A DNA stretch of 64,000 nucleotides, from contig NZ_JADOBQ010000007.1 of the NCBI RefSeq assembly GCF_015644665.1, positions 62,001 through 126,000 of the forward strand, written 5' to 3'. The notes under the pieces were generated by a model. The model was given only the letters and a program-made list of their open reading frames with translations, did not search any database and was not told the DNA's origin. The position numbers and the translations under genes were made by a program. Of this stretch, positions 34,708 through 55,610 are shown in pieces (the first letter of the stretch is position 1; the number at the start of each line of letters is the position of its first letter). The stretch comes from Roseobacter sp. MH60115. GTDB taxonomy: Bacteria; Pseudomonadota; Alphaproteobacteria; Rhodobacterales; Rhodobacteraceae.

Positions 34708-35304
34708 TCAAAAACTGGGCGGTGTGCAGGCGCTAATGATCTCGCACTCTTCGGTCCCGGTGTTTCGGAACCGGTGGGGCAACTGGCTGTTGAAAAGATA
34801 CCCGTCGCCGGGGCCTAAGGTGCCGACCTCGTCGTCCACGGTGATCTCGATTTGACCGCGAATGATCACCCCGGCCTCTTCCGCATCATGGCTGAGCAGT
34901 TCCGGCCCGGTATCCGCACCCGGGGCATAGCGCTCGTGCAGCAGCTGCAGCGCGTGCTCCTGCGCGTTCCCCAGCTGGCGCAGGGACAGGAGTTGCGCCT
35001 GCGGTCCATCGAGATCGGGGGGTGCGATTTCGGTGAATTCCTCGGCGGTGTAGAAGTATTTGCTCTGGCTGGTCTCTTCGAGCGTGGCAAAGAATTCGGC
35101 CATCGACACCTGAATCGCATCCAACAGGCTTTTGAGCGAGGCCACGGACGGGCTGGTCTTGTTCTGCTCGATCAGGGAAATCGTGCCATTGGTCAGCCCT
35201 GCCCGTGTGGCAAGTTCCCGCTGGGAAAGCCCCCGTTTTTTTCGGATCGTGCGTAGCCTGTGTCCAATATCCAAGGGGCCGGTTCCTCGTCTTTCGGGTG
35301 ACAT
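34708..35304 (-). CDS. XRE-cupin transcriptional regulator (PuuR-like)
   Basis: A 198-residue regulator with an N-terminal helix-turn-helix (LRTIRKKRGLSQRELA, TNGTISLIEQNKTSP; about residues 17-57) and a C-terminal cupin sensor domain (LSHDAEEAGVIIRGQIEIT, LPHRFRN). The layout and HTH sequence resemble PuuR, the repressor of putrescine use. The ATG at 35304 is chosen; the frame continues to 35388. It is divergent from a GABA-type aminotransferase gene, a likely target. The ligand is inferred only. Confidence 0.82.
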   Translation of the reverse strand: MSPERRGTGPLDIGHRLRTIRKKRGLSQRELATRAGLTNGTISLIEQNKTSPSVASLKSLLDAIQVSMAEFFATLEETSQSKYFYTAEEFTEIAPPDLDGPQAQLLSLRQLGNAQEHALQLLHERYAPGADTGPELLSHDAEEAGVIIRGQIEITVDDEVGTLGPGDGYLFNSQLPHRFRNTGTEECEIISACTPPSF

Positions 35305-35415
35305 GTTGGTTTTGCTTGGTTTTTTAAACAGCAAGCCGGGTCTGTGCTCAATCCCTTTTCTGCCAGCCGCGATCGAGAAGTCATCCATTCCATAAAAACG
35401 GCTGCAGAATCACGA

Positions 35416-39099: not shown

Positions 39100-40158
39100 A
39101 TGACCCCATTCGCCATTGCCGGCGTGCAGATGTATGTGAACGCGCTGCATTCCAATGTGGAAGGGATGATCCACCGGCTGGACGTGCTGATGGCGCGGTT
39201 CCCCTGGACGCAGATGGTGCTGTTTTCCGAGCTGGCGCCCTACGGTCCGCTCGACAAATTTGCCCAGGCCCCGCAGAACGATGCGCTCGACACCTTCTGC
39301 GAAGCGGCGCGCAAGCATCGCGTCTGGCTGATCCCCGGTTCGATGTTTCTGCGCGATCCGGAGACGGGCATGGTGTTCAATACCGCCGTGGTGATCAACC
39401 CCGAGGGTGAGATCATCAAGCGCTATGCCAAGATGTTCCCCTTCCGGCCCTATGAAACGGGCATTGCCGCGGGCACGGAATTCTGCGTCTTCGACGTGCC
39501 GGAGGTCGGGCGGTTCGGTCTGTCGATCTGCTACGATATCTGGTTCCCCGAGACCACGCGGCAACTCACAGCGCAGGGTGTCGAGGTGCTGTTGCACCCG
39601 GTGCTGACCGGGACAACCGACCGGGACGCGGAACTGGCAATCGCCCGGTCCACGGCGGCACAGTTCCAATGTTACGTCTTTGACGTAAACGGGCTTGGCG
39701 CGGGCGGCGTGGGCAAATCGCTGGTCGTGGACCCCTCGGCCCATGTGCTGCACCAGTCTGCGGGACAGGAAGATATGTTCCCCATCGAGGTCGACCTGTC
39801 GATGGTGCGCCGCCAGCGCGAAACCGGCATGAAGGGGCTGGGTCAGGTCCTCAAGAGTTTCCGCGACCGGTCCGTCGATTTCTCGGTCTATGACCGGAAC
39901 AGCGGAACCGATGCCTATCTCAAGACGTTGGGTCCACTGGAAATACCTCAACAAGGGACGCGCGCGGGACTTCACGTGGATGTGCCAGCAGAAAAAGTTC
40001 AGGACACGCCTGCTTTCAAAGGTATGGCGATTGACACGCTGTCCGGATCCGTGACCGCGCATCCTGCGTCCAATACGACGAAAACTGCCCAAACAGAGGC
40101 AGCACCCCAACCCCCGACCGAAGAAATTCGGGGGAGCGAAAAACAATCTAGCGGGTAG
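39100..40158 (+). CDS. Carbon-nitrogen hydrolase (nitrilase superfamily)
   Basis: A 352-residue amidase-type enzyme with the Glu-Lys-Cys triad: E in VLFSELAPYG (about residue 44), K in KRYAKMFPFRP (about 111) and C in LSICYDIWFPE (about 143). The last 70 residues are Thr/Pro/Ala-rich and look disordered. Relatives include N-carbamoylputrescine amidase and omega-amidase. GGAG is 9 bases before the ATG. It heads a long + strand array with a PLP decarboxylase, so an amide or carbamoyl amine substrate is plausible. Confidence 0.88.
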   Translation: MTPFAIAGVQMYVNALHSNVEGMIHRLDVLMARFPWTQMVLFSELAPYGPLDKFAQAPQNDALDTFCEAARKHRVWLIPGSMFLRDPETGMVFNTAVVINPEGEIIKRYAKMFPFRPYETGIAAGTEFCVFDVPEVGRFGLSICYDIWFPETTRQLTAQGVEVLLHPVLTGTTDRDAELAIARSTAAQFQCYVFDVNGLGAGGVGKSLVVDPSAHVLHQSAGQEDMFPIEVDLSMVRRQRETGMKGLGQVLKSFRDRSVDFSVYDRNSGTDAYLKTLGPLEIPQQGTRAGLHVDVPAEKVQDTPAFKGMAIDTLSGSVTAHPASNTTKTAQTEAAPQPPTEEIRGSEKQSSG

Positions 40159-40234
40159 ATCGCCGGGCCTTGCCGGGCGGTCCCTTCCGCCCGGCGTATA
40201 ATCGGTGGTTTTCCCGGACAGCGGAGGACAACTG

Positions 40235-42988
40235 ATGCACGCGATAAACGACTACTCTTCGGCGATCCAATTGCGCTCGGACAGGTGGAGCGCGCTGCGC
40301 GAAACAACTGCCGCGTTGACCCGCGGTCCAAAGCCCAAACAGGAAGCGGAACTGCGCAAGACGGTCGAGGAGCTTTTCAAGTCGCTCGCCGTGATCGAAC
40401 CCTATTGGGCGTTCCCCGGCATGTCGGCTTTCGACCACATGCGGCGGCAGTTCGAGCATAACTCCTTGGATGATCTGGCTTTTGCTGTGGGGCGGGTAAC
40501 GCGCGCGCTGACGACCGGGGCATACCGCCGGCGCCACATCCCGCTGGAGCGCGACAGTGTCGATGCCGAAGAGCATGATGACGAGGCGATGCTGCCGCCC
40601 GAGGCGCGGGCATTGGCCAAACCTTATTTCGAAGTGCTGATTGTCGACAATGTGAACGAGCACCAGGAACGCTGGCTGCGCAGCAATGTCACGCGAATGC
40701 GTCGCGCCGAAGACCCGTTTGTCTACGAGGCGCTGGTGGTGCCGAGCCTTGAGGACGCGCTGGTTGCGGTGCTCTTCAACCACAACATCCAGGCCATCGT
40801 GGTGCGCCCCGGGCTGGTGCTGAAATCCAAGATGGATCAGGAGATCGTTGCCCGGTTCATCACCCGCGCCGGCGGGCAGGAAGAGATCGACAACATGCTG
40901 CCCGAAAACTACGGGCCGGAATTGTGTCGGTTGGTGGCCAAGGTGCGGCCCGAGCTTGACGCCTATCTGGTCACCGAACGCTCGGTGGAGGAGATCGCCG
41001 GGCTTGATCTGGGGATTTGCCGCCGGGTCTTCTACAATCAGGAAGACTTCATGGAGTTGCACCTGAACATCCTGCGCGGGGTGCAAGCCCGCAACAAGAC
41101 CCCGTTCTTTACCGCGCTTGTCGAGTATTCCAAGCAGCCCACGGGGGTGTTCCACGCGATGCCGATCAGTCGTGGAAAATCGATCAGCCGCAGTCACTGG
41201 ATACAGGATATGGGGGCCTTCTACGGGCCCAATATCTTCCTCGCTGAAACCTCGGCCACCTCGGGCGGCCTCGACAGCCTGCTGGAGCCGCACGGGCCGA
41301 TCAAGGAAGCACAGGAACTGGCCAGCCGCGCTTTCGGATCGAAGCAGACGTTTTTCGCGACAAACGGGACCTCGACCTGCAATAAGATCGTCGTGCAAGC
41401 CCTTGTTCGGCCTGGAGATATCGTGTTGGTCGATCGCGACTGTCACAAGTCGCACCACTACGGCATGGTGCTGGCGGGCGCGCAGGTCTGTTACCTCGAC
41501 AGCTATCCGCTCAATGAATATTCGATGTACGGCGCGGTGCCGCTGCGCGAGATCAAGCATCAGCTTTTGAAGCTCAAGGCCGAAGGTAAGCTGGACCGGG
41601 TGCGGATGCTGTTGTTGACCAACTGCACCTTTGACGGACTGGTCTACAATGTCGAGCGGGTGATGGAGGAGTGTCTGGCGATCAAACCGGACCTGATCTT
41701 CCTGTGGGACGAGGCGTGGTTTGCCTTCGCGCGGTTCAATCCAACCTATCGCCAACGCACGGCCATGGCAGCGGCGGGTAATCTCAAAGAGAAATTCCGC
41801 AGCGACACGCATGAACGGCTCTATGAGGCGCAAAAGTCGATGTTAGCGGATTGCGACGACGAAAAACTGCTTGAAACGCGCTTGATCCCGCCCCCCAACG
41901 CCCGCGTGCGGGCCTATGCGACGCAATCGACCCACAAGACGCTGACGTCGCTCAGGCAGGGGTCGATGATCCATGTCTTTGATCAGGACTTCAAAGGTGA
42001 GGTGGAGCAGGCGTTTCACGAGGCCTACATGACGCACACATCGACCTCGCCGAATTACCAGATCATCGCAAGCCTCGACGTGGGACGGCGGCAGGTGGAA
42101 CTGGAAGGGTTCGAATTCGTCCAGCGCCAGATCGAAGCAGCAATGTCGATGCGACGGGCGATCATGACGCATCCGCTGTTGTCCAAGTATTTCAAGGTAT
42201 TGACCGCCGGAGACATGATCCCGGATTTCCACCGTCAGTCGGGCGTGACCAGCTACTACGATGCAGAGCAGGGCTGGACCGATATGTGGGACTGCTGGGA
42301 GCAGGATGATTTCGTGCTGGATGCCACGCGGGTCACGCTGGCCGTGGGGGGTACGGGCTGGGACGGCGACACGTTCAAGACCGATATCCTGATGGATAAA
42401 TACGGTATCCAGATCAACAAGACCTCGCGCAATACGGTCCTGTTCATGACCAACATTGGTACCACGCGGTCGTCGGTCGCCTACCTGATCGAGGTGCTGG
42501 TGGAGATCGCCAAGTCGCTCGATGAGCGCCTGGATGACGCGAGCCGGATGGAGCGCCTGTCGTTTGACCGGCGGGTCCAGAACCTGATGGAAGAGCTGCC
42601 GCCGCTGCCGGACTTCAGCCGTTTCCACGATGCTTTCCGACAATGTGAGGTCACCGGGGAGGGGGACATCCGCTCGGCCTTCTTTCTCGCCTACGACGAG
42701 GAGAAATGCGACTATTACGACATCAACGGGTCGCTCGGCGCGGCGCTTGAGGCGGGCGAAGAGGTGGTGTCAGCCAGCTTCATCATCCCCTATCCGCCGG
42801 GCTTCCCGATCCTGGTGCCCGGACAGGTGGTCAGCAAGGAAATCCTGGCTTTCATGCTGGCACTGGACGTGAGCGAAATCCACGGCTACCGGCCCGATCT
42901 GGGGCTGCGGGTCTTTACCCAAGAAGCGTTACAAACGCTCGTCGACGCCAAACCGGTGACGCAAAAACTGGCCCAGGTGGCCGAATAA
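40235..42988 (+). CDS. Large Orn/Lys/Arg decarboxylase-family PLP enzyme
   Basis: A 917-residue fold-type-I decarboxylase. The N-terminal wing (about 1-270) precedes the PLP domain with FFATNGTSTCNKIVVQAL, HKSHHYGMVLAGA, FLWDEAWFAF and the PLP lysine in QSTHKTLTSLRQGSM; the C-terminal domain contains the YPPGFPILVPG substrate-site loop. It is some 170-200 residues longer than the E. coli enzymes. It decarboxylates a basic amino acid; which one cannot be told. GGAGG is 7 bases before the ATG. It sits between an amidase and an ATP-grasp gene. Confidence 0.92.
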   Translation: MHAINDYSSAIQLRSDRWSALRETTAALTRGPKPKQEAELRKTVEELFKSLAVIEPYWAFPGMSAFDHMRRQFEHNSLDDLAFAVGRVTRALTTGAYRRRHIPLERDSVDAEEHDDEAMLPPEARALAKPYFEVLIVDNVNEHQERWLRSNVTRMRRAEDPFVYEALVVPSLEDALVAVLFNHNIQAIVVRPGLVLKSKMDQEIVARFITRAGGQEEIDNMLPENYGPELCRLVAKVRPELDAYLVTERSVEEIAGLDLGICRRVFYNQEDFMELHLNILRGVQARNKTPFFTALVEYSKQPTGVFHAMPISRGKSISRSHWIQDMGAFYGPNIFLAETSATSGGLDSLLEPHGPIKEAQELASRAFGSKQTFFATNGTSTCNKIVVQALVRPGDIVLVDRDCHKSHHYGMVLAGAQVCYLDSYPLNEYSMYGAVPLREIKHQLLKLKAEGKLDRVRMLLLTNCTFDGLVYNVERVMEECLAIKPDLIFLWDEAWFAFARFNPTYRQRTAMAAAGNLKEKFRSDTHERLYEAQKSMLADCDDEKLLETRLIPPPNARVRAYATQSTHKTLTSLRQGSMIHVFDQDFKGEVEQAFHEAYMTHTSTSPNYQIIASLDVGRRQVELEGFEFVQRQIEAAMSMRRAIMTHPLLSKYFKVLTAGDMIPDFHRQSGVTSYYDAEQGWTDMWDCWEQDDFVLDATRVTLAVGGTGWDGDTFKTDILMDKYGIQINKTSRNTVLFMTNIGTTRSSVAYLIEVLVEIAKSLDERLDDASRMERLSFDRRVQNLMEELPPLPDFSRFHDAFRQCEVTGEGDIRSAFFLAYDEEKCDYYDINGSLGAALEAGEEVVSASFIIPYPPGFPILVPGQVVSKEILAFMLALDVSEIHGYRPDLGLRVFTQEALQTLVDAKPVTQKLAQVAE

Positions 42989-43012
42989 TACCAACAGAGA
43001 GGACATCATGAT

Positions 43013-44464
43013 ATGGCAGCCACGGTTCTGAAGAACATCTCGGAGATCCGCCGCTATTTCCACCGCAACGAGGACCCGATTTATTTCATTTCGGCCACGA
43101 ACTTCAACCTGTTGGGGCTCGATGAATGGGTGAAGAATTTCAAATACATCTGCTACATCGACTGCTACGGCGGCAAGCATCCGAACGTGTTCTGTCCGTC
43201 CGAGCAGCCGCATGCGGAATTCCAGTCCATCGAGGACATCAACAACTATCTGCTGCAGCACAAGGAAGTGATTGACTTCATCAAGCGGCGGGGCGGCAAG
43301 CCGAAATTCGTCTTCCTGATGTTTGACGAGGAGACCGAGCGTCTGTCGAAAGAGTTGGGCGCGGAGGTCTGGTTCCCCAAGGCGAAGTTGCGCACGAAGA
43401 TGGACAACAAGATCGAGACCGTGCGCATCGGCAACAAGGCGGGCGTGCCGTCGGTGCCCAATGTCCTGGCCGAGGTCAAATCCTATGAGGACCTGAAGAA
43501 GACCTGCGAAAAGGCCAAGATCGGGCATGATCTGGTGTTGCAGTCCGCCTTTGGCGATAGTGGGCATACGACGTTTTTCATCAAATCCGAGGCCGATTTC
43601 CGGCGCCACGAGCATGAGATCGTCGGTGAGGGCGAGATCAAGATCATGAAGCGGATCGACTGCCGGGGATCGGCGATCGAGGCCTGTGCCACCAAGGAAG
43701 GCACCATCGTGGGCCCGCTGATGACGGAGCTGGTCGGGTTCAAGGAACTCACCCCCTATCGCGGCGGCTGGTGCGGCAACGAGATTCTGTCGACCGCCTT
43801 TCCGCCGAAAGTGCGGCAGAAGGCACGTGATCTGACCTTCAAGTTCGGGGAGCAGCTGCGCAAGGAGGGCTATCGCGGCTATTTTGAGCTCGATTTCCTG
43901 ATCGACAAGAAGACGGGCGATCTCTGGCTGGGCGAGCTTAATCCGCGCATTACAGGCGCGTCCTCCATGACCAACCATGCGGCCTTTGCCCATGCGGATG
44001 CGCCGCTGTTCCTGTTCCACCTGCTGGAATTCTCGAAAAAGAAATTCAACCTGGATGTGGATGAGCTGAACGCCCGCTGGGCCGACAGCGCCAATATCGA
44101 CAGCTGGTCGCAGATGGTGATCAAACACACTGACGACAGCGTGGACATCTGCACTGGCAGCCCGGAAACCGGCATCTACAAGATGCTGGAGGATGGGCGG
44201 GTGGTCTATGACCGCTTTGACTATCACCGCCGGGCGGTGGAGAGCGAGAACGAGGCGTTTTTCCTGCGCATTCTGCAGCCGGGGGACTACCGCTATGAAG
44301 GGGCAGACATCGGCATTCTGGTGACGCGCGGCCGGTCCATGACCAAGAATTTCCGGTTGAATGAACGGGCCAAAAAGTGGATTCACGGCATCAAGCAATC
44401 GGTGACGGCCAAGCCGCTGCCCACCGCGACCGCTTTTGACGATCCGGCGTTCAAGATCCTCTGA
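43013..44464 (+). CDS. Stand-alone ATP-grasp ligase (biotin-carboxylase-like)
   Basis: A 483-residue protein with an ATP-grasp domain in the middle (about residues 130-340): NKAGVPSVPNVLAE, LVLQSAFGDSGHTTFF as glycine-rich loop, and the metal site GYRGYFELDFLIDKKTGDLWL followed by GELNPRITGASS. It lacks a biotin-carrier domain and no carrier gene is near, so it is probably an amide-forming ligase rather than a carboxylase. It lies 24 bases after the decarboxylase, suggesting that the amine made there could be its acceptor substrate. Confidence 0.85.
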   Translation: MAATVLKNISEIRRYFHRNEDPIYFISATNFNLLGLDEWVKNFKYICYIDCYGGKHPNVFCPSEQPHAEFQSIEDINNYLLQHKEVIDFIKRRGGKPKFVFLMFDEETERLSKELGAEVWFPKAKLRTKMDNKIETVRIGNKAGVPSVPNVLAEVKSYEDLKKTCEKAKIGHDLVLQSAFGDSGHTTFFIKSEADFRRHEHEIVGEGEIKIMKRIDCRGSAIEACATKEGTIVGPLMTELVGFKELTPYRGGWCGNEILSTAFPPKVRQKARDLTFKFGEQLRKEGYRGYFELDFLIDKKTGDLWLGELNPRITGASSMTNHAAFAHADAPLFLFHLLEFSKKKFNLDVDELNARWADSANIDSWSQMVIKHTDDSVDICTGSPETGIYKMLEDGRVVYDRFDYHRRAVESENEAFFLRILQPGDYRYEGADIGILVTRGRSMTKNFRLNERAKKWIHGIKQSVTAKPLPTATAFDDPAFKIL

Positions 44465-44486
44465 CCCGAAAGGACATGCGCACCCC

Positions 44487-45458
44487 ATGTTATGGCGCGC
44501 CGTAAGTGAAGACAGCCCCGGGCCGAAATGGTCCGGGCTTTTTGCCGAATACTGGCCGGACTACAAAGACTGGTGGTTGAAGGAAGGCGAAAGCACACGC
44601 CCGACCTATGCGGAGTCGCGCTCCGCTTTGCAGCAGCATATGCCGGAGATCGTGCCGCTTTATGATGAGCTCTGCGAATTGGCGGGGGGCGGCGATCTGG
44701 CGGCGCGGTTCTTGTCCTTCTACTGCCCGCCGCCCTATCTCGCGGGCTGCAGCCAGGCGATCTGGACCGGCAAGGAGCCGGTCATGGTGCGCAACTACGA
44801 CTACAACCCAAATGCCTTTGACAGCCTCGTTTTGCACACGAAATGGCAGGGGCGCCGGGTCATGGGCACCTCCGACGGGCTCTGGGGGCTGGTGGATGGC
44901 GTCAATGACGCGGGCCTGTCAATTTCGCTCACCTTCGGCGGGCGGCGCGTGGTGGGTGATGGGTTCGGTGTGCCCCTGATCCTGCGCTACGTGTTGCAGA
45001 CCTGCGAAACGGCGGAAGAGGCGAGCGCCGTGCTGGCACGCGTTCCGACGCATATGAGCTACAATGTGACCGTGCTGGACAAAAAGCGCCGGTATCTCAC
45101 GGCGATGATGGCGCCCGACCGGCCTGCGCTGATCACCCATGCCGCCGTTGCCACCAATCATCAGGAAAACGTCGAATGGGTCAGCCACGCCCGGTTCACC
45201 GCCACGGTAGAACGCGAACGATTCCTGTTGCACCGGCTCACCCTGCACCGGGACCCCGAAGAAAAGTTTATCGGGGCCTTTCTCAAACCTCCCTTGTATT
45301 CCACGGCGTTCAACGCGGGTTTCGGCACGCTTTACACGGCGGTTTATCGACCAAAACGCCGTCAGATGGAGTTGCGGTGGCCCGGGACGGTCTGGTCGCT
45401 GTCGATGAAGGACTTCGAAGAAGGCGGGCGTCGCATCCTCTTGCCCGGTGCCGCCTGA
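44487..45458 (+). CDS. C45-type Ntn acyltransferase/hydrolase
   Basis: A 323-residue member of the peptidase C45 / acyl-CoA:6-aminopenicillanate acyltransferase superfamily. CSQAIWTGKEPVMVRNYDYN follows the start of the Ntn fold, with C106-region Cys in LAGCSQ as probable nucleophile after self-cleavage, and DGLWGLVDGVNDAGLSIS is typical. Members make or break amide bonds. It is 22 bases after the ATP-grasp gene and before the transporter genes. The ATG at 44487 is preceded by AAAGGA at a long 13-base distance. Confidence 0.82.
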   Translation: MLWRAVSEDSPGPKWSGLFAEYWPDYKDWWLKEGESTRPTYAESRSALQQHMPEIVPLYDELCELAGGGDLAARFLSFYCPPPYLAGCSQAIWTGKEPVMVRNYDYNPNAFDSLVLHTKWQGRRVMGTSDGLWGLVDGVNDAGLSISLTFGGRRVVGDGFGVPLILRYVLQTCETAEEASAVLARVPTHMSYNVTVLDKKRRYLTAMMAPDRPALITHAAVATNHQENVEWVSHARFTATVERERFLLHRLTLHRDPEEKFIGAFLKPPLYSTAFNAGFGTLYTAVYRPKRRQMELRWPGTVWSLSMKDFEEGGRRILLPGAA

Positions 45459-45585
45459 GATTTTCGCACCCGCAAATTTTTGCCAGTAGATTCAGCATGC
45501 TTCGCGTTCAAGTTGCAGAAGGGGCTTGCCAAATCGTGCCCCGTCCCAAAGATTGTCGTCAGAAAAACAAAAAGGGGAGACTACA

Positions 45586-47166
45586 ATGAAAATCACCACA
45601 TCACTTCTGTCTGTCGCGGTGCTGCTGTCGAGCACGGCGCTGGCCTCCGCTGACACGCTTCGATGGGCCCGCGCGGGTGACAGCCTGACGCTCGATCCGC
45701 ATGCACAGAACGAAGGCCCAACCACCGCCTTGAACCATCAGATCATGGAGCCGCTAGTGCATCGCGATCATGAGGGCACCATCGTGGGGGCCCTTGCGAC
45801 CGAATGGACCCCATCCGAGGATGACCCCAACGTCTGGATTTTCAAACTGCGCGAAGGTGTGACCTTTCACGATGGCGCGGCCTTCGACAGTTCGGATGTG
45901 AAGTTCAGCCTTGACCGTGCGATGACAGAAGACTCCGACTTTAAGGAGTTGTTGGCCTCCGTGGCCGAGGTGCGCGCGCCGGATGCCTATACCATCGAGA
46001 TCGTGACCGACGGTCCGAACCCGATCATGCCCAACAACCTGACCAATATGTTCATCATGGACCAGGAGTGGGCCGAGGCGAACAACGCCGTGAAGGTGCA
46101 GGACTATGAAGGTGGCGAGGATACATTCGCTGCGAAAAATGCCAACGGCACAGGGCCCTACAAGGTTGTGAGCCGCGAACCCGACGTCAAGACCGTGCTG
46201 GCGCTCAACGAGAACTACTGGGGCAAGGATGAATTCCCGCTCGAAGTGACCGAGATCATCTACACGCCGATCCAGAACGCGGCCACCCGCGTGGCAGCGC
46301 TGCTGTCCGGTGAGGTTGATTTCATTCAGGACGTACCGGTGCAGGATCTTGAGCGGGTCGCAAGTACCGATGGGCTCGACGTGCGCACGGCTCCGCAAAA
46401 CCGGGTGATCTTCTTCGGCATGAACGTCGGCGATGAAGACCTTGCCAACGACAGCGTCGAAGGGGCCAACCCGCTGGCGGATGTGCGTGTGCGCGAGGCG
46501 ATGAACCTCGCCATCAACCGCGATGCCATCAAGCAGGTGGTGATGCGCGGCCAATCCGCGCCTGCGGGCATGATCGCGCCGCCCTTTGTGAACGGCTGGG
46601 ACGAGGCGATGGATGCGTCCTCATCCACCGATCTCGAAAAGGCGAAAACGCTGATGGGCGAGGCCGGTTATGGTGACGGTTTCTCGATCCAGCTCGATTG
46701 CCCGAATGACCGCTACATCAATGACGAGGCGATCTGCCAGGCCGCCGTTGGGATGCTGGCGCAGATCGGGGTGAACGTGAACCTCGATGCCAAGCCCAAG
46801 GCGCAACACTTCCCGCTGCTCAGCAATCTGGAAACGGATTTCTACATGCTGGGCTGGGGCGTGCCGACCTACGATTCCGAGTATATCTTCAACTTCCTGG
46901 TACACGGGCGTGACGACAAATATGGGTCGTGGAATGCGACGCGCTACACCAACGACGATCTGAACGACAAGATTCAGAGCCTCGCGTCGAACACCGATCT
47001 GGAAGCGCGTGACGCCGATATCGCCGCGATCTGGCAGGTGGTGCAGGATGAGAAGATCTATATCCCCATCCACCACCAGGTGCTGAACTGGGGCATGAAA
47101 TCCGGGGTCGACACGGTTGTCGAAGCGGAAGATTCGCCCAAAATCAAGTATTTCAAGCTGAACTGA
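45586..47166 (+). CDS. ABC transporter substrate-binding protein 1 (peptide type)
   Basis: A 526-residue SBP_bac_5 protein with signal peptide MKITTSLLSVAVLLSSTALA cleaved before SADTLRW. Family segments are DSLTLDPHAQNEGP, FKLREGVTFHDGAAFDSSDV and the conserved CPNDRYINDEAICQA. GGGGAG is 7 bases before the ATG; the frame stays open upstream but lacks a signal there. It is the first of two binding proteins for the transporter encoded downstream and, given the strong ribosome site, probably abundant. Confidence 0.92.
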   Translation: MKITTSLLSVAVLLSSTALASADTLRWARAGDSLTLDPHAQNEGPTTALNHQIMEPLVHRDHEGTIVGALATEWTPSEDDPNVWIFKLREGVTFHDGAAFDSSDVKFSLDRAMTEDSDFKELLASVAEVRAPDAYTIEIVTDGPNPIMPNNLTNMFIMDQEWAEANNAVKVQDYEGGEDTFAAKNANGTGPYKVVSREPDVKTVLALNENYWGKDEFPLEVTEIIYTPIQNAATRVAALLSGEVDFIQDVPVQDLERVASTDGLDVRTAPQNRVIFFGMNVGDEDLANDSVEGANPLADVRVREAMNLAINRDAIKQVVMRGQSAPAGMIAPPFVNGWDEAMDASSSTDLEKAKTLMGEAGYGDGFSIQLDCPNDRYINDEAICQAAVGMLAQIGVNVNLDAKPKAQHFPLLSNLETDFYMLGWGVPTYDSEYIFNFLVHGRDDKYGSWNATRYTNDDLNDKIQSLASNTDLEARDADIAAIWQVVQDEKIYIPIHHQVLNWGMKSGVDTVVEAEDSPKIKYFKLN

Positions 47167-47191
47167 GCCTGAGACGCTTGTGACATAAAAC

Positions 47192-47218
47192 GGCGTGGCC
47201 CGATTACCGGGCCGCGCC
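47192..47218 (+). terminator. Intercistronic hairpin between two binding-protein genes
   Basis: GGCGTGGCCCG (47192-47202) pairs with CGGGCCGCGCC (47208-47218), 11 pairs with one T-G wobble, 5-base loop and no T-run. Hairpins at this place in transporter operons usually stabilise the binding-protein mRNA against decay. Confidence 0.65.
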
Positions 47219-47259
47219 GCCACCGCTTTCCCGCATCTCCTGCTGAAAGGGTTCCTCTT

Positions 47260-48825: not shown

Positions 48826-48893
48826 CCCGGCGTAGGTCCAGGCAGGGCAGGCTTTGCGCTTGACCCCACCCAAGACAGGCAACAATAAGACAT

Positions 48894-49874
48894 ATGCTCG
48901 CTTTCGTCATCCGCCGTGTGCTTCAGTCCATTCTCGTGCTGCTTGTGGTCGGGTTGGTGGCGTTTTCCATGTTCCGTTTTGTCGGCGACCCCGTGGACAA
49001 CATGCTGGGCCAGGAACGCACGCAAGCCGATATCGAGCGGCTGCGCAGCCAGCTGGGACTGGATCAGCCATTTGCGGTGCAATACTTCAAATTCCTGCAA
49101 GGTGCCGCCCAGGGTAATTTCGGCGTCAGCTACCGGCAAGGGCGCCCGGTCTCGGACATCCTGATGGAACGCGCACCGGCCACGCTTGAGCTTGCAGCTG
49201 TCTCCGGGTTTCTCGCAATCAGTATCGGCATCGCGCTCGGCGTCTTTACCGCCATCAGGCGCAACGGGTTTACCGCCAACGCGATCATGTCCGTCTCGCT
49301 GATCGGTGTCTCGCTGCCGACCTTTCTGATCGGAATTTTACTGATCTATCTGTTTTCCGTCGAATTGGGCTGGCTGCCCAGTTTCGGGCGGGGCGAAACG
49401 GTGATAATCGGCGGCTGGTCGACCGGGTTTCTGACGGAAAGCGGGCTCAAGGCGCTGATCCTGCCCTCGATCACGCTGGGGCTCTATCAGATGACGCTCA
49501 TCATGCGGCTGGTGCGGTCCGAGATGCTGGAAGTCCTGCGACAAGACTACATCCGCTTTGCCCGCGCCCGGGGGTTGCGCGACCGCGCGGTCAATTTCCG
49601 TCACGCGCTCAAGAACACGCTGGTGCCGGTGATTACGGTTACCGGGTTGCAGCTGGGCTCTATCATCGCCTTTGCCATCATCACCGAGACAGTCTTTCAA
49701 TGGCCGGGTGTCGGCCTCTTATTCATCAACGCCATTCAGTTCGTGGACATCCCCGTGATGGCGGCCTATCTGATGCTGATCTCGGTGATGTTCGTGGCCA
49801 TCAACCTGATCGTTGATCTGCTTTACTTTGCAATCGATCCGCGTTTGCGCGTCGATAGAACGGCGGCCCACTGA
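48894..49874 (+). CDS. ABC transporter permease, DppB type
   Basis: A 326-residue membrane permease with the DppB-type N-terminus (LAFVIRRVLQSILVLLVVGL), MFRFVGDPVDNMLG, GNFGVSYRQGRPV and the EAA-loop region FARARGLRDRAVNFRHALKN. It is followed with a 1-base overlap by the partner permease. It belongs to the peptide-type transporter of this array. Confidence 0.93.
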   Translation: MLAFVIRRVLQSILVLLVVGLVAFSMFRFVGDPVDNMLGQERTQADIERLRSQLGLDQPFAVQYFKFLQGAAQGNFGVSYRQGRPVSDILMERAPATLELAAVSGFLAISIGIALGVFTAIRRNGFTANAIMSVSLIGVSLPTFLIGILLIYLFSVELGWLPSFGRGETVIIGGWSTGFLTESGLKALILPSITLGLYQMTLIMRLVRSEMLEVLRQDYIRFARARGLRDRAVNFRHALKNTLVPVITVTGLQLGSIIAFAIITETVFQWPGVGLLFINAIQFVDIPVMAAYLMLISVMFVAINLIVDLLYFAIDPRLRVDRTAAH

Positions 49875-50830
49875 TGTCCGAGACCTCCCTTGAACCCACT
49901 GTACAGGCCGTCGAACGCTCGCGCTTCCGTCTCGCGCTGGAAAGCGATTTTGCCTATCAGTTCAAAAAATCCCCGGTTGCCATCGTCTCTGCGACCGTTG
50001 TCCTGACCATGGTGCTCTGTGCGGTCTTTGCGCCGCTGATCGCTCCTTACAATCCGTTTGATCCCGCCTCGCTGAACCTGATGAACGGGTTCTCGAAACC
50101 GATGGAACCCAATGCCTTTACCGGAGACATCTTCTGGCTGGGCACGGACGATCAGGGCCGCGACGTGTTTTCCACCATCCTCTACGGCATGCGCATTTCG
50201 CTCTTTGTCGGCGCGGCGGCGGTGCTTTTTGCGATGGTGCTGGGCGTGACCCTCGGCCTTGTGGCGGGGTATCTGGGCGGCTGGACCGAAACCATCATCA
50301 TGCGGGTTGCCGACGTTCAGCTGACTTTCCCGGCGATCCTCGTGGCCATGCTCATATTTGGCATCGCCAAGGGCATCACCCCGGTGGAATACCGTGACCA
50401 GATGGCAATCTGGGTACTGATCATTGCAATCGGTCTCAGCGACTGGGTGCAGTTTGCCCGCGTTGTCCGGGGCGCGACGCTGGTGGAAAAGAACAAGGAA
50501 TACGTGCAGGCCGCCCGTCTTATCGGACGCGGGTCGGGCGCGATCATGCTGCGCCACATCCTGCCCAACGTGCTGTCGCCCGTGTTGGTCATTGCCACCA
50601 TCTCGCTGGCACTGGCGATTATTGCCGAAGCGACACTGAGCTTTCTCGGTGTTGGCGCCCCGCCGACACAGCCGTCACTGGGTACGTTGATCCGGATCGG
50701 TCAGGGGTTCCTCTTCTCGGGCGAGTGGTGGATTCTGCTGTTCCCGGCGGTCACGCTTCTGGCGCTGGCACTGTCGGTCAACCTGCTGGGAGACTGGCTG
50801 CGCGACGCGCTGAACCCCCGGCTCAGATAA
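49874..50830 (+). CDS. ABC transporter permease, DppC type
   Basis: A 318-residue permease with a 35-residue cytoplasmic N-tail, a first helix (SATVVLTMVLCAVFAPLIAP), the DppC signature GTDDQGRDVFSTILYGMRIS and the EAA-loop area QAARLIGRGSGAIMLRHILPN. It pairs with the DppB-type subunit to form the channel. A small secreted DUF2059 protein gene follows after 12 bases. Confidence 0.93.
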   Translation: MSETSLEPTVQAVERSRFRLALESDFAYQFKKSPVAIVSATVVLTMVLCAVFAPLIAPYNPFDPASLNLMNGFSKPMEPNAFTGDIFWLGTDDQGRDVFSTILYGMRISLFVGAAAVLFAMVLGVTLGLVAGYLGGWTETIIMRVADVQLTFPAILVAMLIFGIAKGITPVEYRDQMAIWVLIIAIGLSDWVQFARVVRGATLVEKNKEYVQAARLIGRGSGAIMLRHILPNVLSPVLVIATISLALAIIAEATLSFLGVGAPPTQPSLGTLIRIGQGFLFSGEWWILLFPAVTLLALALSVNLLGDWLRDALNPRLR

Positions 50831-50842
50831 AGGACTGCCAAA

Positions 50843-51298
50843 ATGCGACTTCTATCAATTCTCGTGCTGGTCTTCATGGCCTCGGGTGCCTTTGCGCAGG
50901 ACGCCGAACGCGTCGAGGCTGCGACGGCCTATGTGAACAGCAAGGGCCAGCAAGAGCTCATGGACGACATGCTATCCCCCGAGGGGGTGATGGCGCAAAT
51001 GGGTCTGGTGGGTGATCGGGTGCCGGAAGGGAAACAGGAGGCTCTGGCGCGCATCGTTTCCGAAGAGCTCGCGGTGCTGAGGCCCGTGATGGAAGAGGCG
51101 ATGATCAATGGTATGGCCGCGACCTTCACGCTGGAGGAAATAGAGGCCCTGACGGAATTTTACGAATCCGACGTTGGAGCCTCGGCGATCCAAAAGATGA
51201 ACCCTTTCATGGCGCGGACGATGCAGCAGATCGGACCCCAATTCCAAGAGATGCAGACAAACCTGGCGCGCCGACTGCAGGAAGAAATGAGCAAGTAA
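50843..51298 (+). CDS. Secreted DUF2059-type protein within the transporter operon
   Basis: A 151-residue protein with signal peptide MRLLSILVLVFMASGAFA before QDAER. The mature part is helical and ends in the DUF2059 hallmark LEEIEALTEFYESDVGASAIQKM, near residues 97-120. Its function is unknown in the family. It sits 12 bases after a permease gene and 3 bases before an ATPase gene, so it is made with the transporter and would act in the periplasm. Confidence 0.85.
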   Translation: MRLLSILVLVFMASGAFAQDAERVEAATAYVNSKGQQELMDDMLSPEGVMAQMGLVGDRVPEGKQEALARIVSEELAVLRPVMEEAMINGMAATFTLEEIEALTEFYESDVGASAIQKMNPFMARTMQQIGPQFQEMQTNLARRLQEEMSK

Positions 51299-51301
51299 CG
51301 G

Positions 51302-52282
51302 ATGTCTGATCCAGTTCTCTCCATCCGCGATCTCACCGTCGAAATTCCAACACGCCACGGCATTTTGCGCCCGGTGGATGGTGTTTCATATGACATTGCC
51401 GCGGGTGAAATCCTTGGTGTCGTGGGGGAATCCGGGGCTGGCAAATCCATGGCCGGCAACGCCGTGATCGGGCTGCTCAATCCGCCTGCGCATATCGCCA
51501 AGGGCGAGATCCGGGTGCGGGGCACGCGGGTGGATCAACTGACGGGCGACGCCATGCGGCGGCTGCGGGGCAAGGAGATCGGCATGGTCTTTCAGGACCC
51601 GCTGACCTCGCTCAACCCGCTGCTCAGGATCGGGGATCAGCTGACCGAGACGATGCTCGCGCACCTCGACATCTCCCGCACCGAGGCCGACAGGCGCGCG
51701 GTTGCAGCGCTGGAGGAGGTAGGCATTCCCGGTGCCGCCGAACGTGTGGGCAGCTACCCGCATGAGTTCTCCGGCGGCATGCGCCAGCGGGTTGTGATCG
51801 CCCTTGCGCTCTGTGCCGAGCCTTCCCTCATCATCGCGGACGAACCGACAACGGCGCTGGATGTCTCCGTTCAGGCGCAGATTATCGCCCTGCTCAAGAA
51901 ACTCTGCCGCGAAAGAGGCACTGCCGTCATGCTGATCACCCATGACATGGGCGTCATTGCCGAAGCCGCCGACCGTGTGGCCGTCATGTATGCCGGGCAG
52001 TTGGCGGAACTTGGGCCGGTCCGCGATGTGCTGACAGCACCGCATCATCCCTATACCGACGGGCTGATGGGCTCGACCCCGCTGGCCTCGCGCGGCAAGG
52101 ACCGTTTGCACCAGATCCCCGGCGCGATGCCGCGTCTGGACGCGTTACCCGAAGGCTGTGCCTTTCACCCGCGCTGTCCGCGTGTTCAGGACGCCTGTCG
52201 CGTCTCCCCGGGTCCCCGGATCGAAGACGGGGCAGGCCGCGCGGCCTGCCTCTTCCCCATGACGCGGGAGGCCGTAGCCTGA
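51302..52282 (+). CDS. Peptide-type ABC transporter ATPase, DppD type
   Basis: A 326-residue ATP-binding subunit. Walker A GESGAGKS (about residue 43), signature FSGGMRQRV (about 157), Walker [13 protein letters not shown], and the C-terminal oligopeptide extension with a cysteine motif ([15 protein letters not shown]). It overlaps the following ATPase gene by 1 base. It forms the heterodimer that drives uptake. Confidence 0.94.
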
Positions 52283-53244
52283 TGGCGCTTGTCGATGTTC
52301 GCAACCTGACGCGCATCTTTGATGTGTCGAAACCCTGGCTGAACCGTGTGGTGGAGCGGCGGGAGAAATCATATCTGACGGCCGTGTCGGACGTCAGTTT
52401 CGAGATTGCCGAGCGCAGCGTCTATGCATTGGTCGGCGAGAGCGGATCGGGCAAGTCGACCATTGGCAAGATGCTGGTGGGGCTGCTCGGGCCAAGCTCG
52501 GGCGCTGTTGAAATCCGTGGCACCGACCTTGCGCGCGAGAACGATGCCGCGAAAATCGATGCCGTGCGCCGCGACATCCAGATGATTTTCCAGGACCCCT
52601 TTGCCTCGCTCAATCCGCGCTGGCGGGTGCGCGACATCATCGTGGAACCGGTCGCCGCACGGGGCGGCAACACCGACGGCATGGCCGAAAAGTTGCTGGA
52701 ACAGGTGGGGCTTTCCGCCCGGGACGCGGGCAAATTTCCGCATGAGTTCTCCGGCGGCCAGCGGCAGCGTATCTGCATTGCGCGCGCGCTAGCGTCCGAG
52801 CCAAAACTGATTGTCTGTGACGAGCCCACATCGGCGCTGGATGTGTCGGTTCAAGCGCAGGTGCTGAACCTGATGAGTGATCTGAAGGACAGCTTTGGGC
52901 TGACCTATCTTTTCATCAGCCACGATCTGACCGTGGTGCAGCATATGGCCGACCGGATCGGCGTGCTCTATCTGGGCCGTCTGGTGGAAGAGGCGGACCC
53001 GGATGCGCTGTTTGACGATCCCAAACATCCCTACAGCCAGATGCTTCTGGCCGCAGCACCGCAGCTCGACAGCTTTGGCCGGGACGTGCCGCCGCCCACA
53101 GGCGAAATCCCCGATCCGATCAACCCGCCAACAGGCTGCGCCTACCATCCGCGATGCCCCCTTGCCGCGGACATTTGCAGTCAGAAACGCCCCGAGATGC
53201 GCGAAATACGCGGCGCGCGTGTGGCCTGCCACATGGCCGAGTAA
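52282..53244 (+). CDS. Peptide-type ABC transporter ATPase, DppF type
   Basis: A 320-residue partner ATPase. Walker A GESGSGKS (about residue 54), signature FSGGQRQRI, Walker B LIVCDEPTSALD, and the C-terminal GCAYHPRCPLAADIC cysteine motif of this subfamily. It completes the second peptide-type ABC transporter in the window. The next gene starts 9 bases later, so the operon likely continues into the CoA-transferase-family gene. Confidence 0.94.
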   Translation: MALVDVRNLTRIFDVSKPWLNRVVERREKSYLTAVSDVSFEIAERSVYALVGESGSGKSTIGKMLVGLLGPSSGAVEIRGTDLARENDAAKIDAVRRDIQMIFQDPFASLNPRWRVRDIIVEPVAARGGNTDGMAEKLLEQVGLSARDAGKFPHEFSGGQRQRICIARALASEPKLIVCDEPTSALDVSVQAQVLNLMSDLKDSFGLTYLFISHDLTVVQHMADRIGVLYLGRLVEEADPDALFDDPKHPYSQMLLAAAPQLDSFGRDVPPPTGEIPDPINPPTGCAYHPRCPLAADICSQKRPEMREIRGARVACHMAE

Positions 53245-53253
53245 CGGGGTGTC

Positions 53254-54372
53254 ATGACAGGCCCGCTTGCAAGCTTGCAGGTCATCGAATTCTCAGGACT
53301 TGGTCCTGCGCCGCTGGCAGGCCAGTTGCTGGCCGATCTCGGCGCGGATGTCATCACGATTGACCGTAAATCTGCCCCGGCAGACCCCACCGACATCAAT
53401 CGCCGTGGCAAACGCAGCGTTGCGCTGAACCTCAAATCCAAGGATGGCTTGGCGGTGGCGAAGGCCCTTCTCAGCCAGGCGGACATCCTGATCGAAGGGT
53501 TCAGACCCGGGGTGATGGAGCGCTTGGGTCTGGGGCCGTCGGACTGCCCAGAGAGGCTCATCTACGGGCGCATGACGGGTTGGGGTCAGACGGGGCCATG
53601 GGCGGAAACCGCCGGGCATGACATCAACTATCTTGCCATGACGGGCGCCTTGCATGCCATTGGTCCTGCAGATCAGCCCCCCGTACCGCCGCTCAACCTG
53701 GTGGCGGATTTCGGTGGTGGGACGATGTTTCTGCTGCTGGGTATCTTGTCGGCTGTCATTGAGCGCGGCGTCTCTGGCAAGGGGCAAGTCGTGGACGCCG
53801 CAATGGTGGACGGGGTGCCTGCACTGATGGGATTGCTGCACGGCATGCTGGCGCGGGGCAGCTGGCAGAACGCGCGGGGGGCGAACTGGCTCGATGGCGC
53901 TGCGCCCTTTTACCGGTGCTATGTCTGTGCTGATGGCAAATACATCTCGGTTGGCGCGCTGGAGCCGCAGTTCTTTGCCGAACTCGTGGCCAAGGCAGGG
54001 CTGCCCGTTCCGGAAGGGGTTGCGCAGAACGATACGGCGCATTGGCCCGCGCAAAGCGCCACCTTTGCCGAGGTTTTTAAACGCAAGTCGCGCGATGACT
54101 GGATGGCACTCCTAGAGGGCAGTGACGCCTGCGCCGCACCGGTTCTCGATTTCTCCGAGGCAGCAGCACATCCCCAGAACGTCGCGCGGGACGTATTTTA
54201 CGAGGAAGACGGCGTCACACAGGCCAGTCCGGCCCCGCGTTTCAGCAGAACACAGGCCACCAGACCAACAAGCCCGCCCGCCGTGGGTGGCGACACGGAT
54301 GATATCCTCGGCACCCTTGGGTACGACGCGAAAACACGCGCCCGGATGCGGGAAGAGGGCGCGCTGACATGA
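53254..54372 (+). CDS. CaiB/BaiF CoA-transferase family, alpha-methylacyl-CoA racemase type
   Basis: A 372-residue class-III CoA-transferase-fold enzyme. VIEFSGLGPAPLAGQLLADLGADVI opens the protein, in two pieces here near residues 9-33, and GHDINYLAMTGAL contains the His-Asp pair used by AMACR-type racemases (about residue 123). Racemases epimerise 2-methylacyl-CoA; transferases swap CoA, and sequence alone does not settle which applies. The stop overlaps the flavin monooxygenase start (ATGA). Confidence 0.87.
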   Translation: MTGPLASLQVIEFSGLGPAPLAGQLLADLGADVITIDRKSAPADPTDINRRGKRSVALNLKSKDGLAVAKALLSQADILIEGFRPGVMERLGLGPSDCPERLIYGRMTGWGQTGPWAETAGHDINYLAMTGALHAIGPADQPPVPPLNLVADFGGGTMFLLLGILSAVIERGVSGKGQVVDAAMVDGVPALMGLLHGMLARGSWQNARGANWLDGAAPFYRCYVCADGKYISVGALEPQFFAELVAKAGLPVPEGVAQNDTAHWPAQSATFAEVFKRKSRDDWMALLEGSDACAAPVLDFSEAAAHPQNVARDVFYEEDGVTQASPAPRFSRTQATRPTSPPAVGGDTDDILGTLGYDAKTRARMREEGALT

Positions 54373-55610
54373 CCGTCGCGATTGCTGGTGCGGGTATCGC
54401 GGGGCTGACCCTTGGGCTGACGCTGCACCAGATCGGCTTGCCCTTTCGGATTTACGAGGCCGTGCGGCGCCTCAAACCCATGGGTGTCGGGATCAACCTG
54501 CAACCCAATGCGGTGCGGGAATTGATCGATCTGGGGCTGGAAGATGATCTGTCGCGGATTGGTGTCGCCACGCAGAGCCTTGGATTTTATAGCAAAACCG
54601 GTCGAGAGATCTGGACCGAACCAAGGGGCACCGCCGCCGGGTACTATTGGCCGCAGTTTTCGGTGCACCGGGGTCATCTGCAGATGCTCCTTTATGACAC
54701 GCTTGTCGCGCGCGCAGGGGTCGATTGCGTTGTGACCGGTCATCGCGCCACGGGCTTTTCGGCGGCGCGGCTGCATATGGAAACGGTTGACGGGCCAGTT
54801 GACACCAAGGCCCGGCTGATCGTCGCGGCGGATGGCATTCATTCGGCGCTCCGGCACCAGATGTACCCGGAGGAAGGTCCGCCGATCTGGGGCGGAGCGG
54901 TGCTCTGGCGCGGCACGACACAGGCGGTCCCCTTTCTGGGCGGTGCCGACATGATCTTGGCGGGCCATGACAGCCAGCGCTTCGTTGCTTATCCAATCAC
55001 GCCGCCGATCCCCGATACCGGCCAGGCGACGATCAACTGGATTGCGGAGCTGCGGATTGATCCGGCACAGGGATGGCGCAAGGAGGATTGGAACCGGCAG
55101 GCAAATCTTGCGGAGTTTTTGCCCGCTTTCGAGGCGTGGCGTTTCGAATGGCTGGATGTTCCCGCCCTGATCAGGGGCGCGGAAGCGGTCTACGAATACC
55201 CGATGGTGGACCGTGACCCGGTCGACCGCTGGACGCAAGGGCCGGTCACCCTGATGGGTGATGCCGCACACCCGACCTATCCAGTCGGCTCCAATGGTGC
55301 GAGCCAGGCGATCATTGACGCGCGCACCTTGGGGGCCTGTCTCAAAGAACATGGCATTGCCGAAAAGGCGCTCCTTGCCTATGAGGCCGCGATACGCCCC
55401 CGCACCACTGCTGTCACATTGGCCAATCGGGGTGCAGGGCCGGACGCCATCCTGCAGCTGGTAGAGGATCGGTGCGGCGGAGAATTTGATGACATCGAAA
55501 CCGTGGTCCCGCGCGCCGAGCTCGCAGCGCATTCTGCCAAATACAAGTCGCTTGCCGGGTTCGATGTGGCCGCATTGAATGCGCAACCGCCGCTGATCGG
55601 TCCGGTCTGA
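54369..55610 (+). CDS. FAD-dependent monooxygenase (aromatic hydroxylase fold)
   Basis: A 413-residue group A flavoprotein monooxygenase. The FAD-binding GAGIAGLTLG lies at residues 7-16, the second motif VAADGIHSALR near 155, and the third GDAAHPTYPVGSNGASQAI near 297-315. Relatives hydroxylate aromatic or heteroaromatic acids. It is translationally coupled to the CoA-transferase-family gene, so both may act in catabolism of a compound imported by the transporter. The substrate is unknown. Confidence 0.9.
   Translation: MTVAIAGAGIAGLTLGLTLHQIGLPFRIYEAVRRLKPMGVGINLQPNAVRELIDLGLEDDLSRIGVATQSLGFYSKTGREIWTEPRGTAAGYYWPQFSVHRGHLQMLLYDTLVARAGVDCVVTGHRATGFSAARLHMETVDGPVDTKARLIVAADGIHSALRHQMYPEEGPPIWGGAVLWRGTTQAVPFLGGADMILAGHDSQRFVAYPITPPIPDTGQATINWIAELRIDPAQGWRKEDWNRQANLAEFLPAFEAWRFEWLDVPALIRGAEAVYEYPMVDRDPVDRWTQGPVTLMGDAAHPTYPVGSNGASQAIIDARTLGACLKEHGIAEKALLAYEAAIRPRTTAVTLANRGAGPDAILQLVEDRCGGEFDDIETVVPRAELAAHSAKYKSLAGFDVAALNAQPPLIGPV

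What the first reader, a model, noticed from the sequence alone, without database searches (positions are those of the whole stretch)
39100..55610. Amidase / PLP decarboxylase / ATP-grasp ligase / C45 acyltransferase array next to a two-receptor peptide-type transporter
Seen: four enzymes that act on amine or amide bonds lie in a row on one strand (gaps 76, 24 and 22 bases). Two peptide-type binding proteins, two permeases, DUF2059, two ATPases, a CaiB-type and a flavin monooxygenase gene follow. Family knowledge: the decarboxylase makes a di- or polyamine, ATP-grasp enzymes join acids to amines, and C45 and nitrilase enzymes make or break amides. Inference: the locus makes, imports or recycles an amide-linked amine. 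I know of no described pathway with this set.
Basis: partly seen in the sequence, partly recalled or inferred. Interest (0 to 1): 0.72.

Follow-up and report, generated by a model that had tools for sequence, protein, structure and literature searches.

The report
Conserved four-enzyme amide operon, pathway unknown
Four enzyme genes (an amidase, a decarboxylase, an ATP-driven ligase and a second amidase) form a fixed operon in many relatives of the Roseobacter group and recur in distant bacteria, which points to an undescribed pathway that perhaps makes and breaks amides of small amino acids such as GABA or beta-alanine.

Summary
NIT-DC-GRASP-C45 (nitrilase-family amidase, OKR-type PLP decarboxylase, ATP-grasp ligase, C45 Ntn amidase) lie on one strand with gaps of 76, 24 and 22 bases. 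They are a real module: 76 of 80 fetched loci keep all four in order. In 385 Alphaproteobacteria genomes GRASP occurs in 11, DC in 11, both in 9. In 25 more distant loci the genes recur in changed orders.

The window's peptide transporter is not core: 4 of 80 loci have it, while 40 of 80 have a TAXI-TRAP system upstream. And the decarboxylase may not make a polyamine: the Glu proposed to bind lysine in CadA is Asn in 104 of 105 relatives; aspartate-alanine antiporters stand near 6 of 8 lone relatives opened, and these six form one clade; two loci hold the block among ectoine-breakdown genes.

Best reading: an acidic amino acid becomes GABA or beta-alanine, GRASP ties it into an amide, C45/NIT release it, GABA transaminase drains it. 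No call shows a substrate. Three paper searches listed nothing on the block.

The parts
34708..35388 (-). REG, HTH-cupin regulator, PuuR-like but below the PuuR cut-off
   Evidence: NF007408 138.8 bits, cut-off 211; >=50% identical copy in 22 of 80 loci
35483..36877 (+). GABT, 4-aminobutyrate transaminase
   Evidence: TIGR00700 554 bits over cut-off 507; >=60% identical copy in 27 of 80 loci
39100..40158 (+). NIT, nitrilase-superfamily amidase; first gene of the core
   Evidence: PF00795 99.7 bits; best NCBIfam formamidase, only 67 of 406 bits needed
40235..42988 (+). DC, large PLP decarboxylase of the Orn/Lys/Arg (OKR) fold with a long N-terminal part; PLP lysine K578 and pocket N738 (numbered from ORF start 40205)
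   Evidence: PF01276 252 bits; best solved relative 9n0n/9n0o/9n0p, 818 bits; residues by alignment
43013..44464 (+). GRASP, ATP-grasp ligase, highest mean identity of the four
   Evidence: NF005096 758 bits; model pLDDT 89.7; Foldseek best biotin carboxylase 2v58 E 4e-19, TMq 0.60, 14% identity; mean identity 0.84 over 88 loci
44487..45458 (+). C45, Ntn-type autoproteolytic acyltransferase/amidase; invariant Cys C105 (numbered from ORF start 44436)
   Evidence: PF03417 107 bits; NF040521 188 bits over 85; model best match IAT precursor 2x1c E 4e-13
45526..53244 (+). Peptide-type ABC transporter: SBP1, SBP2, two permeases, DUF2059 gene, two ATPases; variable, not core
   Evidence: PF00496 for the SBPs, PF09832; permeases and ATPases named from Roseobacter ponti homologues; window-type system in 4 of 80 loci and on the R. 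ponti plasmid
53254..54372 (+). CaiB/BaiF-type CoA-transferase family gene; shared neighbour in part of the family, probably not core
   Evidence: named from the Roseobacter ponti homologue; no NCBIfam match at 1e-40; >=60% identical copy in 13 of 80 loci
54369..55610 (+). FAD monooxygenase; not core
   Evidence: PF01494, NF005720; >=60% identical copy in 3 of 80 loci

Best explanation
NIT-DC-GRASP-C45 is a conserved metabolic operon that makes and unmakes an amide of a small omega-amino acid. Shown: the four genes stand together in a fixed order in Rhodobacterales, co-occur and co-vary in more distant bacteria, and DC and C45 keep their catalytic residues. Inferred: DC removes the alpha-carboxylate of an acidic amino acid (glutamate to GABA, or aspartate to beta-alanine). 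GRASP uses ATP to join that omega-amino acid to a partner, as carnosine synthases and GAR synthetase do (recalled analogues). C45 and NIT hydrolyse the amide or related amides. GABA transaminase and, elsewhere, aldehyde dehydrogenase pass the freed omega-amino acid to central metabolism. The transporter beside the block (TAXI-TRAP, amino-acid permease, or peptide ABC as here) differs by lineage and brings in precursor or conjugate. The partner and the product are unknown.
For: Unity: 76 of 80 loci in order. GRASP in 11, DC in 11, both in 9 of 385 genomes, Fisher p 6e-15 without tree correction. In 25 loci with GRASP under 80% identical, C45 lies near in 24 (one a fragment), DC in 17 and NIT in 17, in several orders. 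Distances of the four proteins correlate at r 0.89-0.95 over 88 loci (shared descent contributes). Acidic substrate: CadA E526 position is Asn in 104 of 105 DCs (1 gap); R323 and R584 in 105, R742 and K325 in 103 of 105, where three E. coli enzymes have no K/R; Glu526 was proposed as lysine-binding (PMC5607190, passage). Of eight lone-DC loci opened, six have AspT antiporters near, none of the GRASP loci searched has one; the six form one side of a branch, support 100/92; one lies with aspD. A Glu/Asp or C4-dicarboxylate type symporter and a Glu/Asp-like SBP follow the block in Cupriavidus oxalaticus, both below equivalog cut-offs. L129/L130 hold the block after DoeA/DoeB of ectoine breakdown. 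GABA theme: GABA-T over its cut-off near the block; a dehydrogenase whose best model is PuuC, below cut-off, in C. necator; an arginine route that I read as ending in GABA around GRASP-C45 in Shinella. Ligase and amidase folds.
Against: No call shows a substrate or product. The pocket argument is by alignment, not from a structure with ligand. The scan listed 18 conserved K/R positions absent from the three E. coli enzymes (10 further rows are His); I singled out four by closeness in sequence to active-site motifs, so the charge argument is selective. Rv2531c has Ile where most have R742 and Ala at K325, and one S. meliloti DC has Pro at R742. The AspT link is in a sister clade, not in the block; L155 and L160 are lone DCs without AspT; AspT in L150 is below its equivalog cut-off (372 of 547 bits). 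The regulator in C. necator is over the cut-off of PdxR, not of GabR or MocR. Ureohydrolase genes in 6 of 108 loci and arginine genes in Shinella fit arginine or agmatine as well. GABT >=60% identical is seen in only 27 of 80 loci. Two amidases plus a ligase in one operon are not fully explained.
Confidence: 0.33

Rival explanations
1. Polyamine amide pathway: DC makes agmatine, putrescine or cadaverine; GRASP acylates it, for instance with glutamate, as a stand-in for PuuA; transaminase/dehydrogenase oxidise it and C45 stands in for PuuD, releasing GABA for GABA-T.
For: PuuR-like regulator and GABA-T near the block; ureohydrolase in 6 of 108 loci; arginine-catabolism genes around GRASP-C45 in Shinella; dehydrogenase with PuuC as best model in C. 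necator; OKR fold.
Against: CadA Glu526 position is Asn in 104 of 105; AspT near six of eight lone DCs; the regulator is below the PuuR cut-off; no oxidase or aldehyde dehydrogenase was recognised in the window's block.
Confidence: 0.22
2. The block serves ectoine breakdown: DC acts on 2,4-diaminobutyrate, giving 1,3-diaminopropane, which GRASP conjugates.
For: Block after DoeA-DoeB in L129 and L130; ectB 2.7 kb upstream of a lone DC in S. meliloti, with a transposase between; lone DC next to ectoine genes in Phyllobacterium.
Against: DoeA/DoeB found in only L129 and L130 of 110 loci and the window; pocket lacks the acidic residue of CadA and SpeF; the Phyllobacterium DC also has AspT.
Confidence: 0.12
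3. Biosynthesis of a peptide-like small molecule (osmolyte, signal or metallophore): DC supplies an amine, GRASP couples it, C45 exchanges an acyl group as IAT does, NIT trims; the ABC system re-imports it.
For: Ligase plus acyltransferase-type fold; peptide ABC systems of other subtypes near the block in L035, L036, L143, L144 and L135; presence on a symbiotic plasmid near nifA and FixA/FixB-type genes.
Against: Among the frequent neighbour clusters that I identified there is an importer, transaminases and dehydrogenases but no exporter or carrier protein; many smaller clusters were not identified, so this is weak.
Confidence: 0.2
4. Independent genes held together by conserved chromosomal synteny, without one pathway.
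For: Most of the 80 loci are close relatives (Rhodobacterales), where neutral synteny is expected.
Against: Same genes in other orders in distant families; co-occurrence in 9 of 11; GRASP and DC both present but unlinked on one plasmid of Roseateles XES5.
Confidence: 0.05

Closest known systems
Putrescine utilisation (Puu) pathway of E. coli (recalled)
   Same: Ligase makes an amide of an amine, amidase releases GABA, GABA transaminase and a PuuR-like regulator stand by.
   Different: Ligase is ATP-grasp, not glutamine-synthetase type; amidases are C45 and nitrilase; a decarboxylase is built in; no oxidase or dehydrogenase recognised in the window's block.
Rv2531c, structures 9n0n/9n0o/9n0p, 'probable amino acid decarboxylase'
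   Same: Closest solved relative of DC over residues 55-916; shares the pocket Asn, R323 and R584.
   Different: Lacks R742 and K325. A census paper says a cryo-EM study did not clarify its activity (PMC12910592, passages); the structure paper was not held. Its gene neighbours were not examined here.
AAT-fold lysine/arginine/ornithine decarboxylases CadA, AdiA, SpeF
   Same: PLP-binding residues and fold.
   Different: About 200 extra residues compared with CadA, pocket Glu of CadA/SpeF replaced by Asn, different neighbours.
Isopenicillin N acyltransferase (IAT, C45)
   Same: Fold; the residue before the invariant Cys is usually Gly.
   Different: 14% identity in the best structural match; substrate unknown.
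Biotin carboxylase / PurK / GAR synthetase ATP-grasp enzymes
   Same: Fold.
   Different: 11-15% identity in the 50 matches listed; no Pfam match at E 0.001; the database name 'biotin carboxylase' is probably wrong.
Aspartate-alanine antiporter (AspT) modules
   Same: Sister DCs lie near AspT genes.
   Different: No AspT was found in the loci with GRASP; the block has ligase and amidases instead.

Membership tests
OKR / AAT-fold amino acid decarboxylase | PF01276 domain and PLP residues (CadA T220, S221, H245, D330, S364, K367) | tested here: met
   252 bits; identical in 105 of 105 DC rows
Lysine/ornithine decarboxylase | acidic residue at CadA 526, proposed to bind the substrate's distal amine | tested here: not met
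   Asn in 104 of 105, gap in 1; Glu in CadA and SpeF, Thr in AdiA; role from a passage of PMC5607190
Lysine/ornithine decarboxylase | activity on Lys, Orn or Arg | not testable with these tools
   needs an assay
C45 Ntn acyltransferase/amidase | PF03417 / NF040521 match, invariant Cys, IAT fold | tested here: met
   107 bits, 188 over 85 bits, C105 invariant in 35 rows, 2x1c best match
Nitrilase superfamily | PF00795 domain | tested here: met
   99.7 bits over 23.2
Nitrilase superfamily | Glu-Lys-Cys catalytic triad (recalled) | not tested
   no alignment to a solved member was examined for this
Nitrilase superfamily, a named branch | score over an equivalog cut-off | tested here: not met
   best formamidase 67 of 406, AguB 57 of 410 bits; 9 models matched, none over cut-off
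Biotin carboxylase | Pfam biotin-carboxylase domains | tested here: not met
   no Pfam family at E 0.001, although NF005096 carries that name
ATP-grasp superfamily | ATP-grasp fold | tested here: met
   Foldseek E 4e-19 to 2v58, TMq 0.60
Puu pathway | PuuR regulator | tested here: not met
   138.8 bits, cut-off 211
Puu pathway | GABA transaminase | tested here: met
   TIGR00700 554 over 507 bits
Puu pathway | glutamine-synthetase-type PuuA and PuuD-type amidase in the block | tested here: not met
   no such match among the models hit by the four core proteins; the rest of the genome was not searched

The most novel reading that the evidence does not exclude
The block is a new pathway that makes and recycles GABA- or beta-alanine-linked pseudopeptides, and its decarboxylase represents a whole branch of the OKR fold, Rv2531c included, that acts on acidic instead of basic amino acids.
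Probability: 0.27. Interest if true: 0.76.

Novelty: new variant of a known kind. Interest (0 to 1): 0.55.

Why it matters
The block occurs in many Rhodobacterales and on rhizobial symbiotic plasmids, yet its ligase is annotated 'biotin carboxylase' and its decarboxylase 'aminotransferase class I/II-fold enzyme', 'decarboxylase' or 'beta-eliminating lyase-related', and three paper searches listed no description. It gives an orphan decarboxylase family, including one with solved structures and no known substrate, a testable substrate class and three partner enzymes.

Tried and rejected
Polyamine reading of DC: less favoured after the pocket comparison and the AspT neighbours, not excluded. Beta-alanine for pantothenate: the own genome has panC in the window but no PanD. 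But PanD was not found in 148 of 149 family genomes, whether or not one search found GRASP in them, so this says nothing. Riboswitch: no Rfam match at gathering score in 34000-57000. Promoter and terminator scans of 38500-49000 gave numbers no better than shuffles. Anti-phage defence: for the four core proteins only a 19-bit nitrilase-domain match. Sequence relatives of C45 in the PDB: best E 0.08. Literature: SMa0680/SMa0682 papers (listing; passages) could not be tied to this DC. Paper searches on AspT-linked decarboxylases (10 of 968 listed) and on the cluster (12 of 20 listed) showed nothing relevant; the Rv2531c structure paper is not held. The tree of DCs has very long branches to the E. 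coli enzymes and L133 and five open forks, so only the AspT clade is used from it.

The 25 distant loci are those I fetched from hits, not all hits. Neighbour clusters come from 108 loci, two of them lone DCs, and most small clusters were not identified. C45 and NIT counts in the distant loci include fragments and, in L033 and L142, a NIT several kb away on the other strand. The six lone-DC plasmid loci are six of 39 records that one search found with DC, most of which were not opened. In one search one of the 11 GRASP hits (G712) is partial.
Full report
What is there. The window lies at 62001-126000 of one contig of a 4.76-Mb genome whose nearest named relatives are Roseobacter and Sulfitobacter. 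NIT is a nitrilase-superfamily protein far below every named branch; DC is a 917-residue PLP decarboxylase of the Orn/Lys/Arg fold; C45 is an Ntn-type acyltransferase/amidase; GRASP has no Pfam hit and meets an NCBIfam model called biotin carboxylase. Models of GRASP (pLDDT 89.7) and C45 (91.9) match ATP-grasp enzymes of the biotin carboxylase/PurK/GAR synthetase group and the precursor of isopenicillin N acyltransferase. Upstream stand a PuuR-like regulator, below the PuuR cut-off, and a GABA transaminase above its cut-off.

The four genes are a unit. A scan with an 11-row GRASP alignment gave 80 loci, the best of at least 437. In 76 of 80 the four genes stand in the same order and strand with short gaps; one of the other four has a split match in DC and three are cut by contig ends. 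In the same draw of 385 Alphaproteobacteria genomes GRASP was found in 11 (one partial), DC in 11 and both in 9, an association of p 6e-15 by Fisher's test without correction for kinship; in those nine the two matches are 40 to 433 bases apart. In a draw of 398 from the phylum GRASP is in 11. In 25 fetched loci whose GRASP is under 80% identical to the window's, C45 is near in 24 (one a fragment), DC in 17 and NIT in 17. Orders differ: NIT-GRASP-C45-DC in L129-L131, C45 and NIT divergent from DC-GRASP in L132, no DC near in L033, L135-L138, L142, L144 and L145. Over 88 loci with all four, pairwise distances of the four proteins correlate at 0.89 to 0.95, which shared descent alone would partly give.

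What varies. The window's two-receptor transporter is found in 4 of 80 loci and on a Roseobacter ponti plasmid. A TAXI-type TRAP receptor with fused permease lies upstream in 40 of 80. Other peptide ABC systems lie near the block in three rhizobial loci (a transposase between in one), Cupriavidus necator and L135; Shinella has an amino-acid permease. Among the 80, GABT (>=60% identity) is present in 27, the regulator in 22, both in 17, the glutamate synthase-family gene in 26, CaiB in 13, the monooxygenase in 3 and DUF2059 in 1; class-III transaminases of any kind in 43. So the core is the four enzymes, with a slot for an importer and frequent but not constant links to transaminases.

What the decarboxylase acts on. 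DC's best solved relative is Rv2531c (818 bits); a census paper calls it a probable amino acid decarboxylase whose activity a recent cryo-EM study did not clarify (PMC12910592, passages). I aligned 105 DC rows with CadA, AdiA and SpeF. The PLP contacts tested are kept (one row differs at His366). The Glu at CadA 526, proposed as lysine-binding (PMC5607190, passage), is Asn in 104 of 105 with one gap. The same call listed 18 conserved K/R positions that the three E. coli enzymes lack; four of them (R323, K325, R584, R742; 103 to 105 of 105) lie close in sequence to active-site motifs, a choice made by eye. I opened six lone-DC loci among the plasmid hits (39 records had DC); with L149 and L150 that makes eight. 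AspT-type aspartate-alanine antiporters lie near DC in six of the eight, and in none of the GRASP loci searched. The six form one side of a well-supported branch. One of them lies with aspD, carbonic anhydrase and an HdeA/HdeB gene, as in an acid-resistance module. L129 and L130 hold the block directly after DoeA, DoeB and an Lrp-type gene, and before a dehydrogenase, a transaminase and a threonine-dehydratase-like gene; I read the last three as the rest of an ectoine-breakdown set, from memory, whose end product is aspartate. These facts favour an acidic substrate, glutamate or aspartate. They do not prove it: the pocket is inferred from alignment, and arginine-catabolism genes in Shinella and ureohydrolase genes in L146-L148 speak for arginine.

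How it most likely works. DC would give GABA or beta-alanine; GRASP would tie this to an unknown partner; C45 and NIT would open amides; GABA transaminase would drain the product. Loci without DC would get GABA otherwise, as in Shinella by a 4-guanidinobutyrate route (my reading of the annotated genes around GRASP-C45 there). Shown: presence, conservation, folds, neighbours. Inferred: every reaction. On checking the calls I lowered this reading from 0.36 to 0.33 and the novel case from 0.30 to 0.27: the C. necator regulator passes the PdxR cut-off and not those of MocR or GabR, and the charged positions were chosen from 18; the polyamine rival rose from 0.20 to 0.22.

Novelty. Searches for PRK06524 (no paper), for at least three of ATP-grasp, C45, decarboxylase, Roseobacter and agmatine (18 listed), and for at least three of C45 family peptidase, biotin carboxylase, carbon-nitrogen hydrolase, ATP-grasp, gene cluster and gamma-aminobutyric (12 of 20 listed) listed no paper on the block; I saw listings only. 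The held library is open-licence papers. The enzyme families are known, the set was not found described, so I call it a new variant of a known kind.

Noticed in passing
window 24205-25068: panC (pantoate--beta-alanine ligase) is present but PanD was not found in the own genome nor in 148 of 149 family genomes, so the family's source of beta-alanine for CoA is unclear.
   Followed up: partly
L034 9141-13682; plasmid hits H25-H32: Several rhizobial symbiotic-plasmid copies look broken: DC annotated as two pieces and C45 cut short beside transposases in R. leguminosarum OyaliB, and only part of GRASP, in 2 or 3 pieces, in eight Sinorhizobium records.
   Followed up: no
L135-L138: A second GRASP group, 44-48% identical to the window's, sits with C45 and NIT but without DC nearby; L136 and L137 also have GABA-T and ALDH, L136 a TRAP transporter, L135 a peptide transporter.
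   Followed up: partly
window 44444-44461: GRASP ends in a PAFKIL tail of low model confidence, seen as FKIL or FKIM in four other rows read to the end; K481 is nearly invariant in 38 rows. It may be a docking peptide.
   Followed up: no
window 44517-44537: A 9-pair hairpin followed by T's lies just inside the C45 gene; the scan found no clear excess over shuffles.
   Followed up: no
L149, L150, L156-L159: Lone relatives of DC stand near AspT antiporters, which suggests an undescribed acid-resistance or energy-coupling module.
   Followed up: partly
window 36925-38592: FMN-binding glutamate synthase-family gene (named from the R. ponti homologue) stands between GABT and the block on the other strand; a >=55% identical copy is near the block in 26 of 80 loci.
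   Followed up: no
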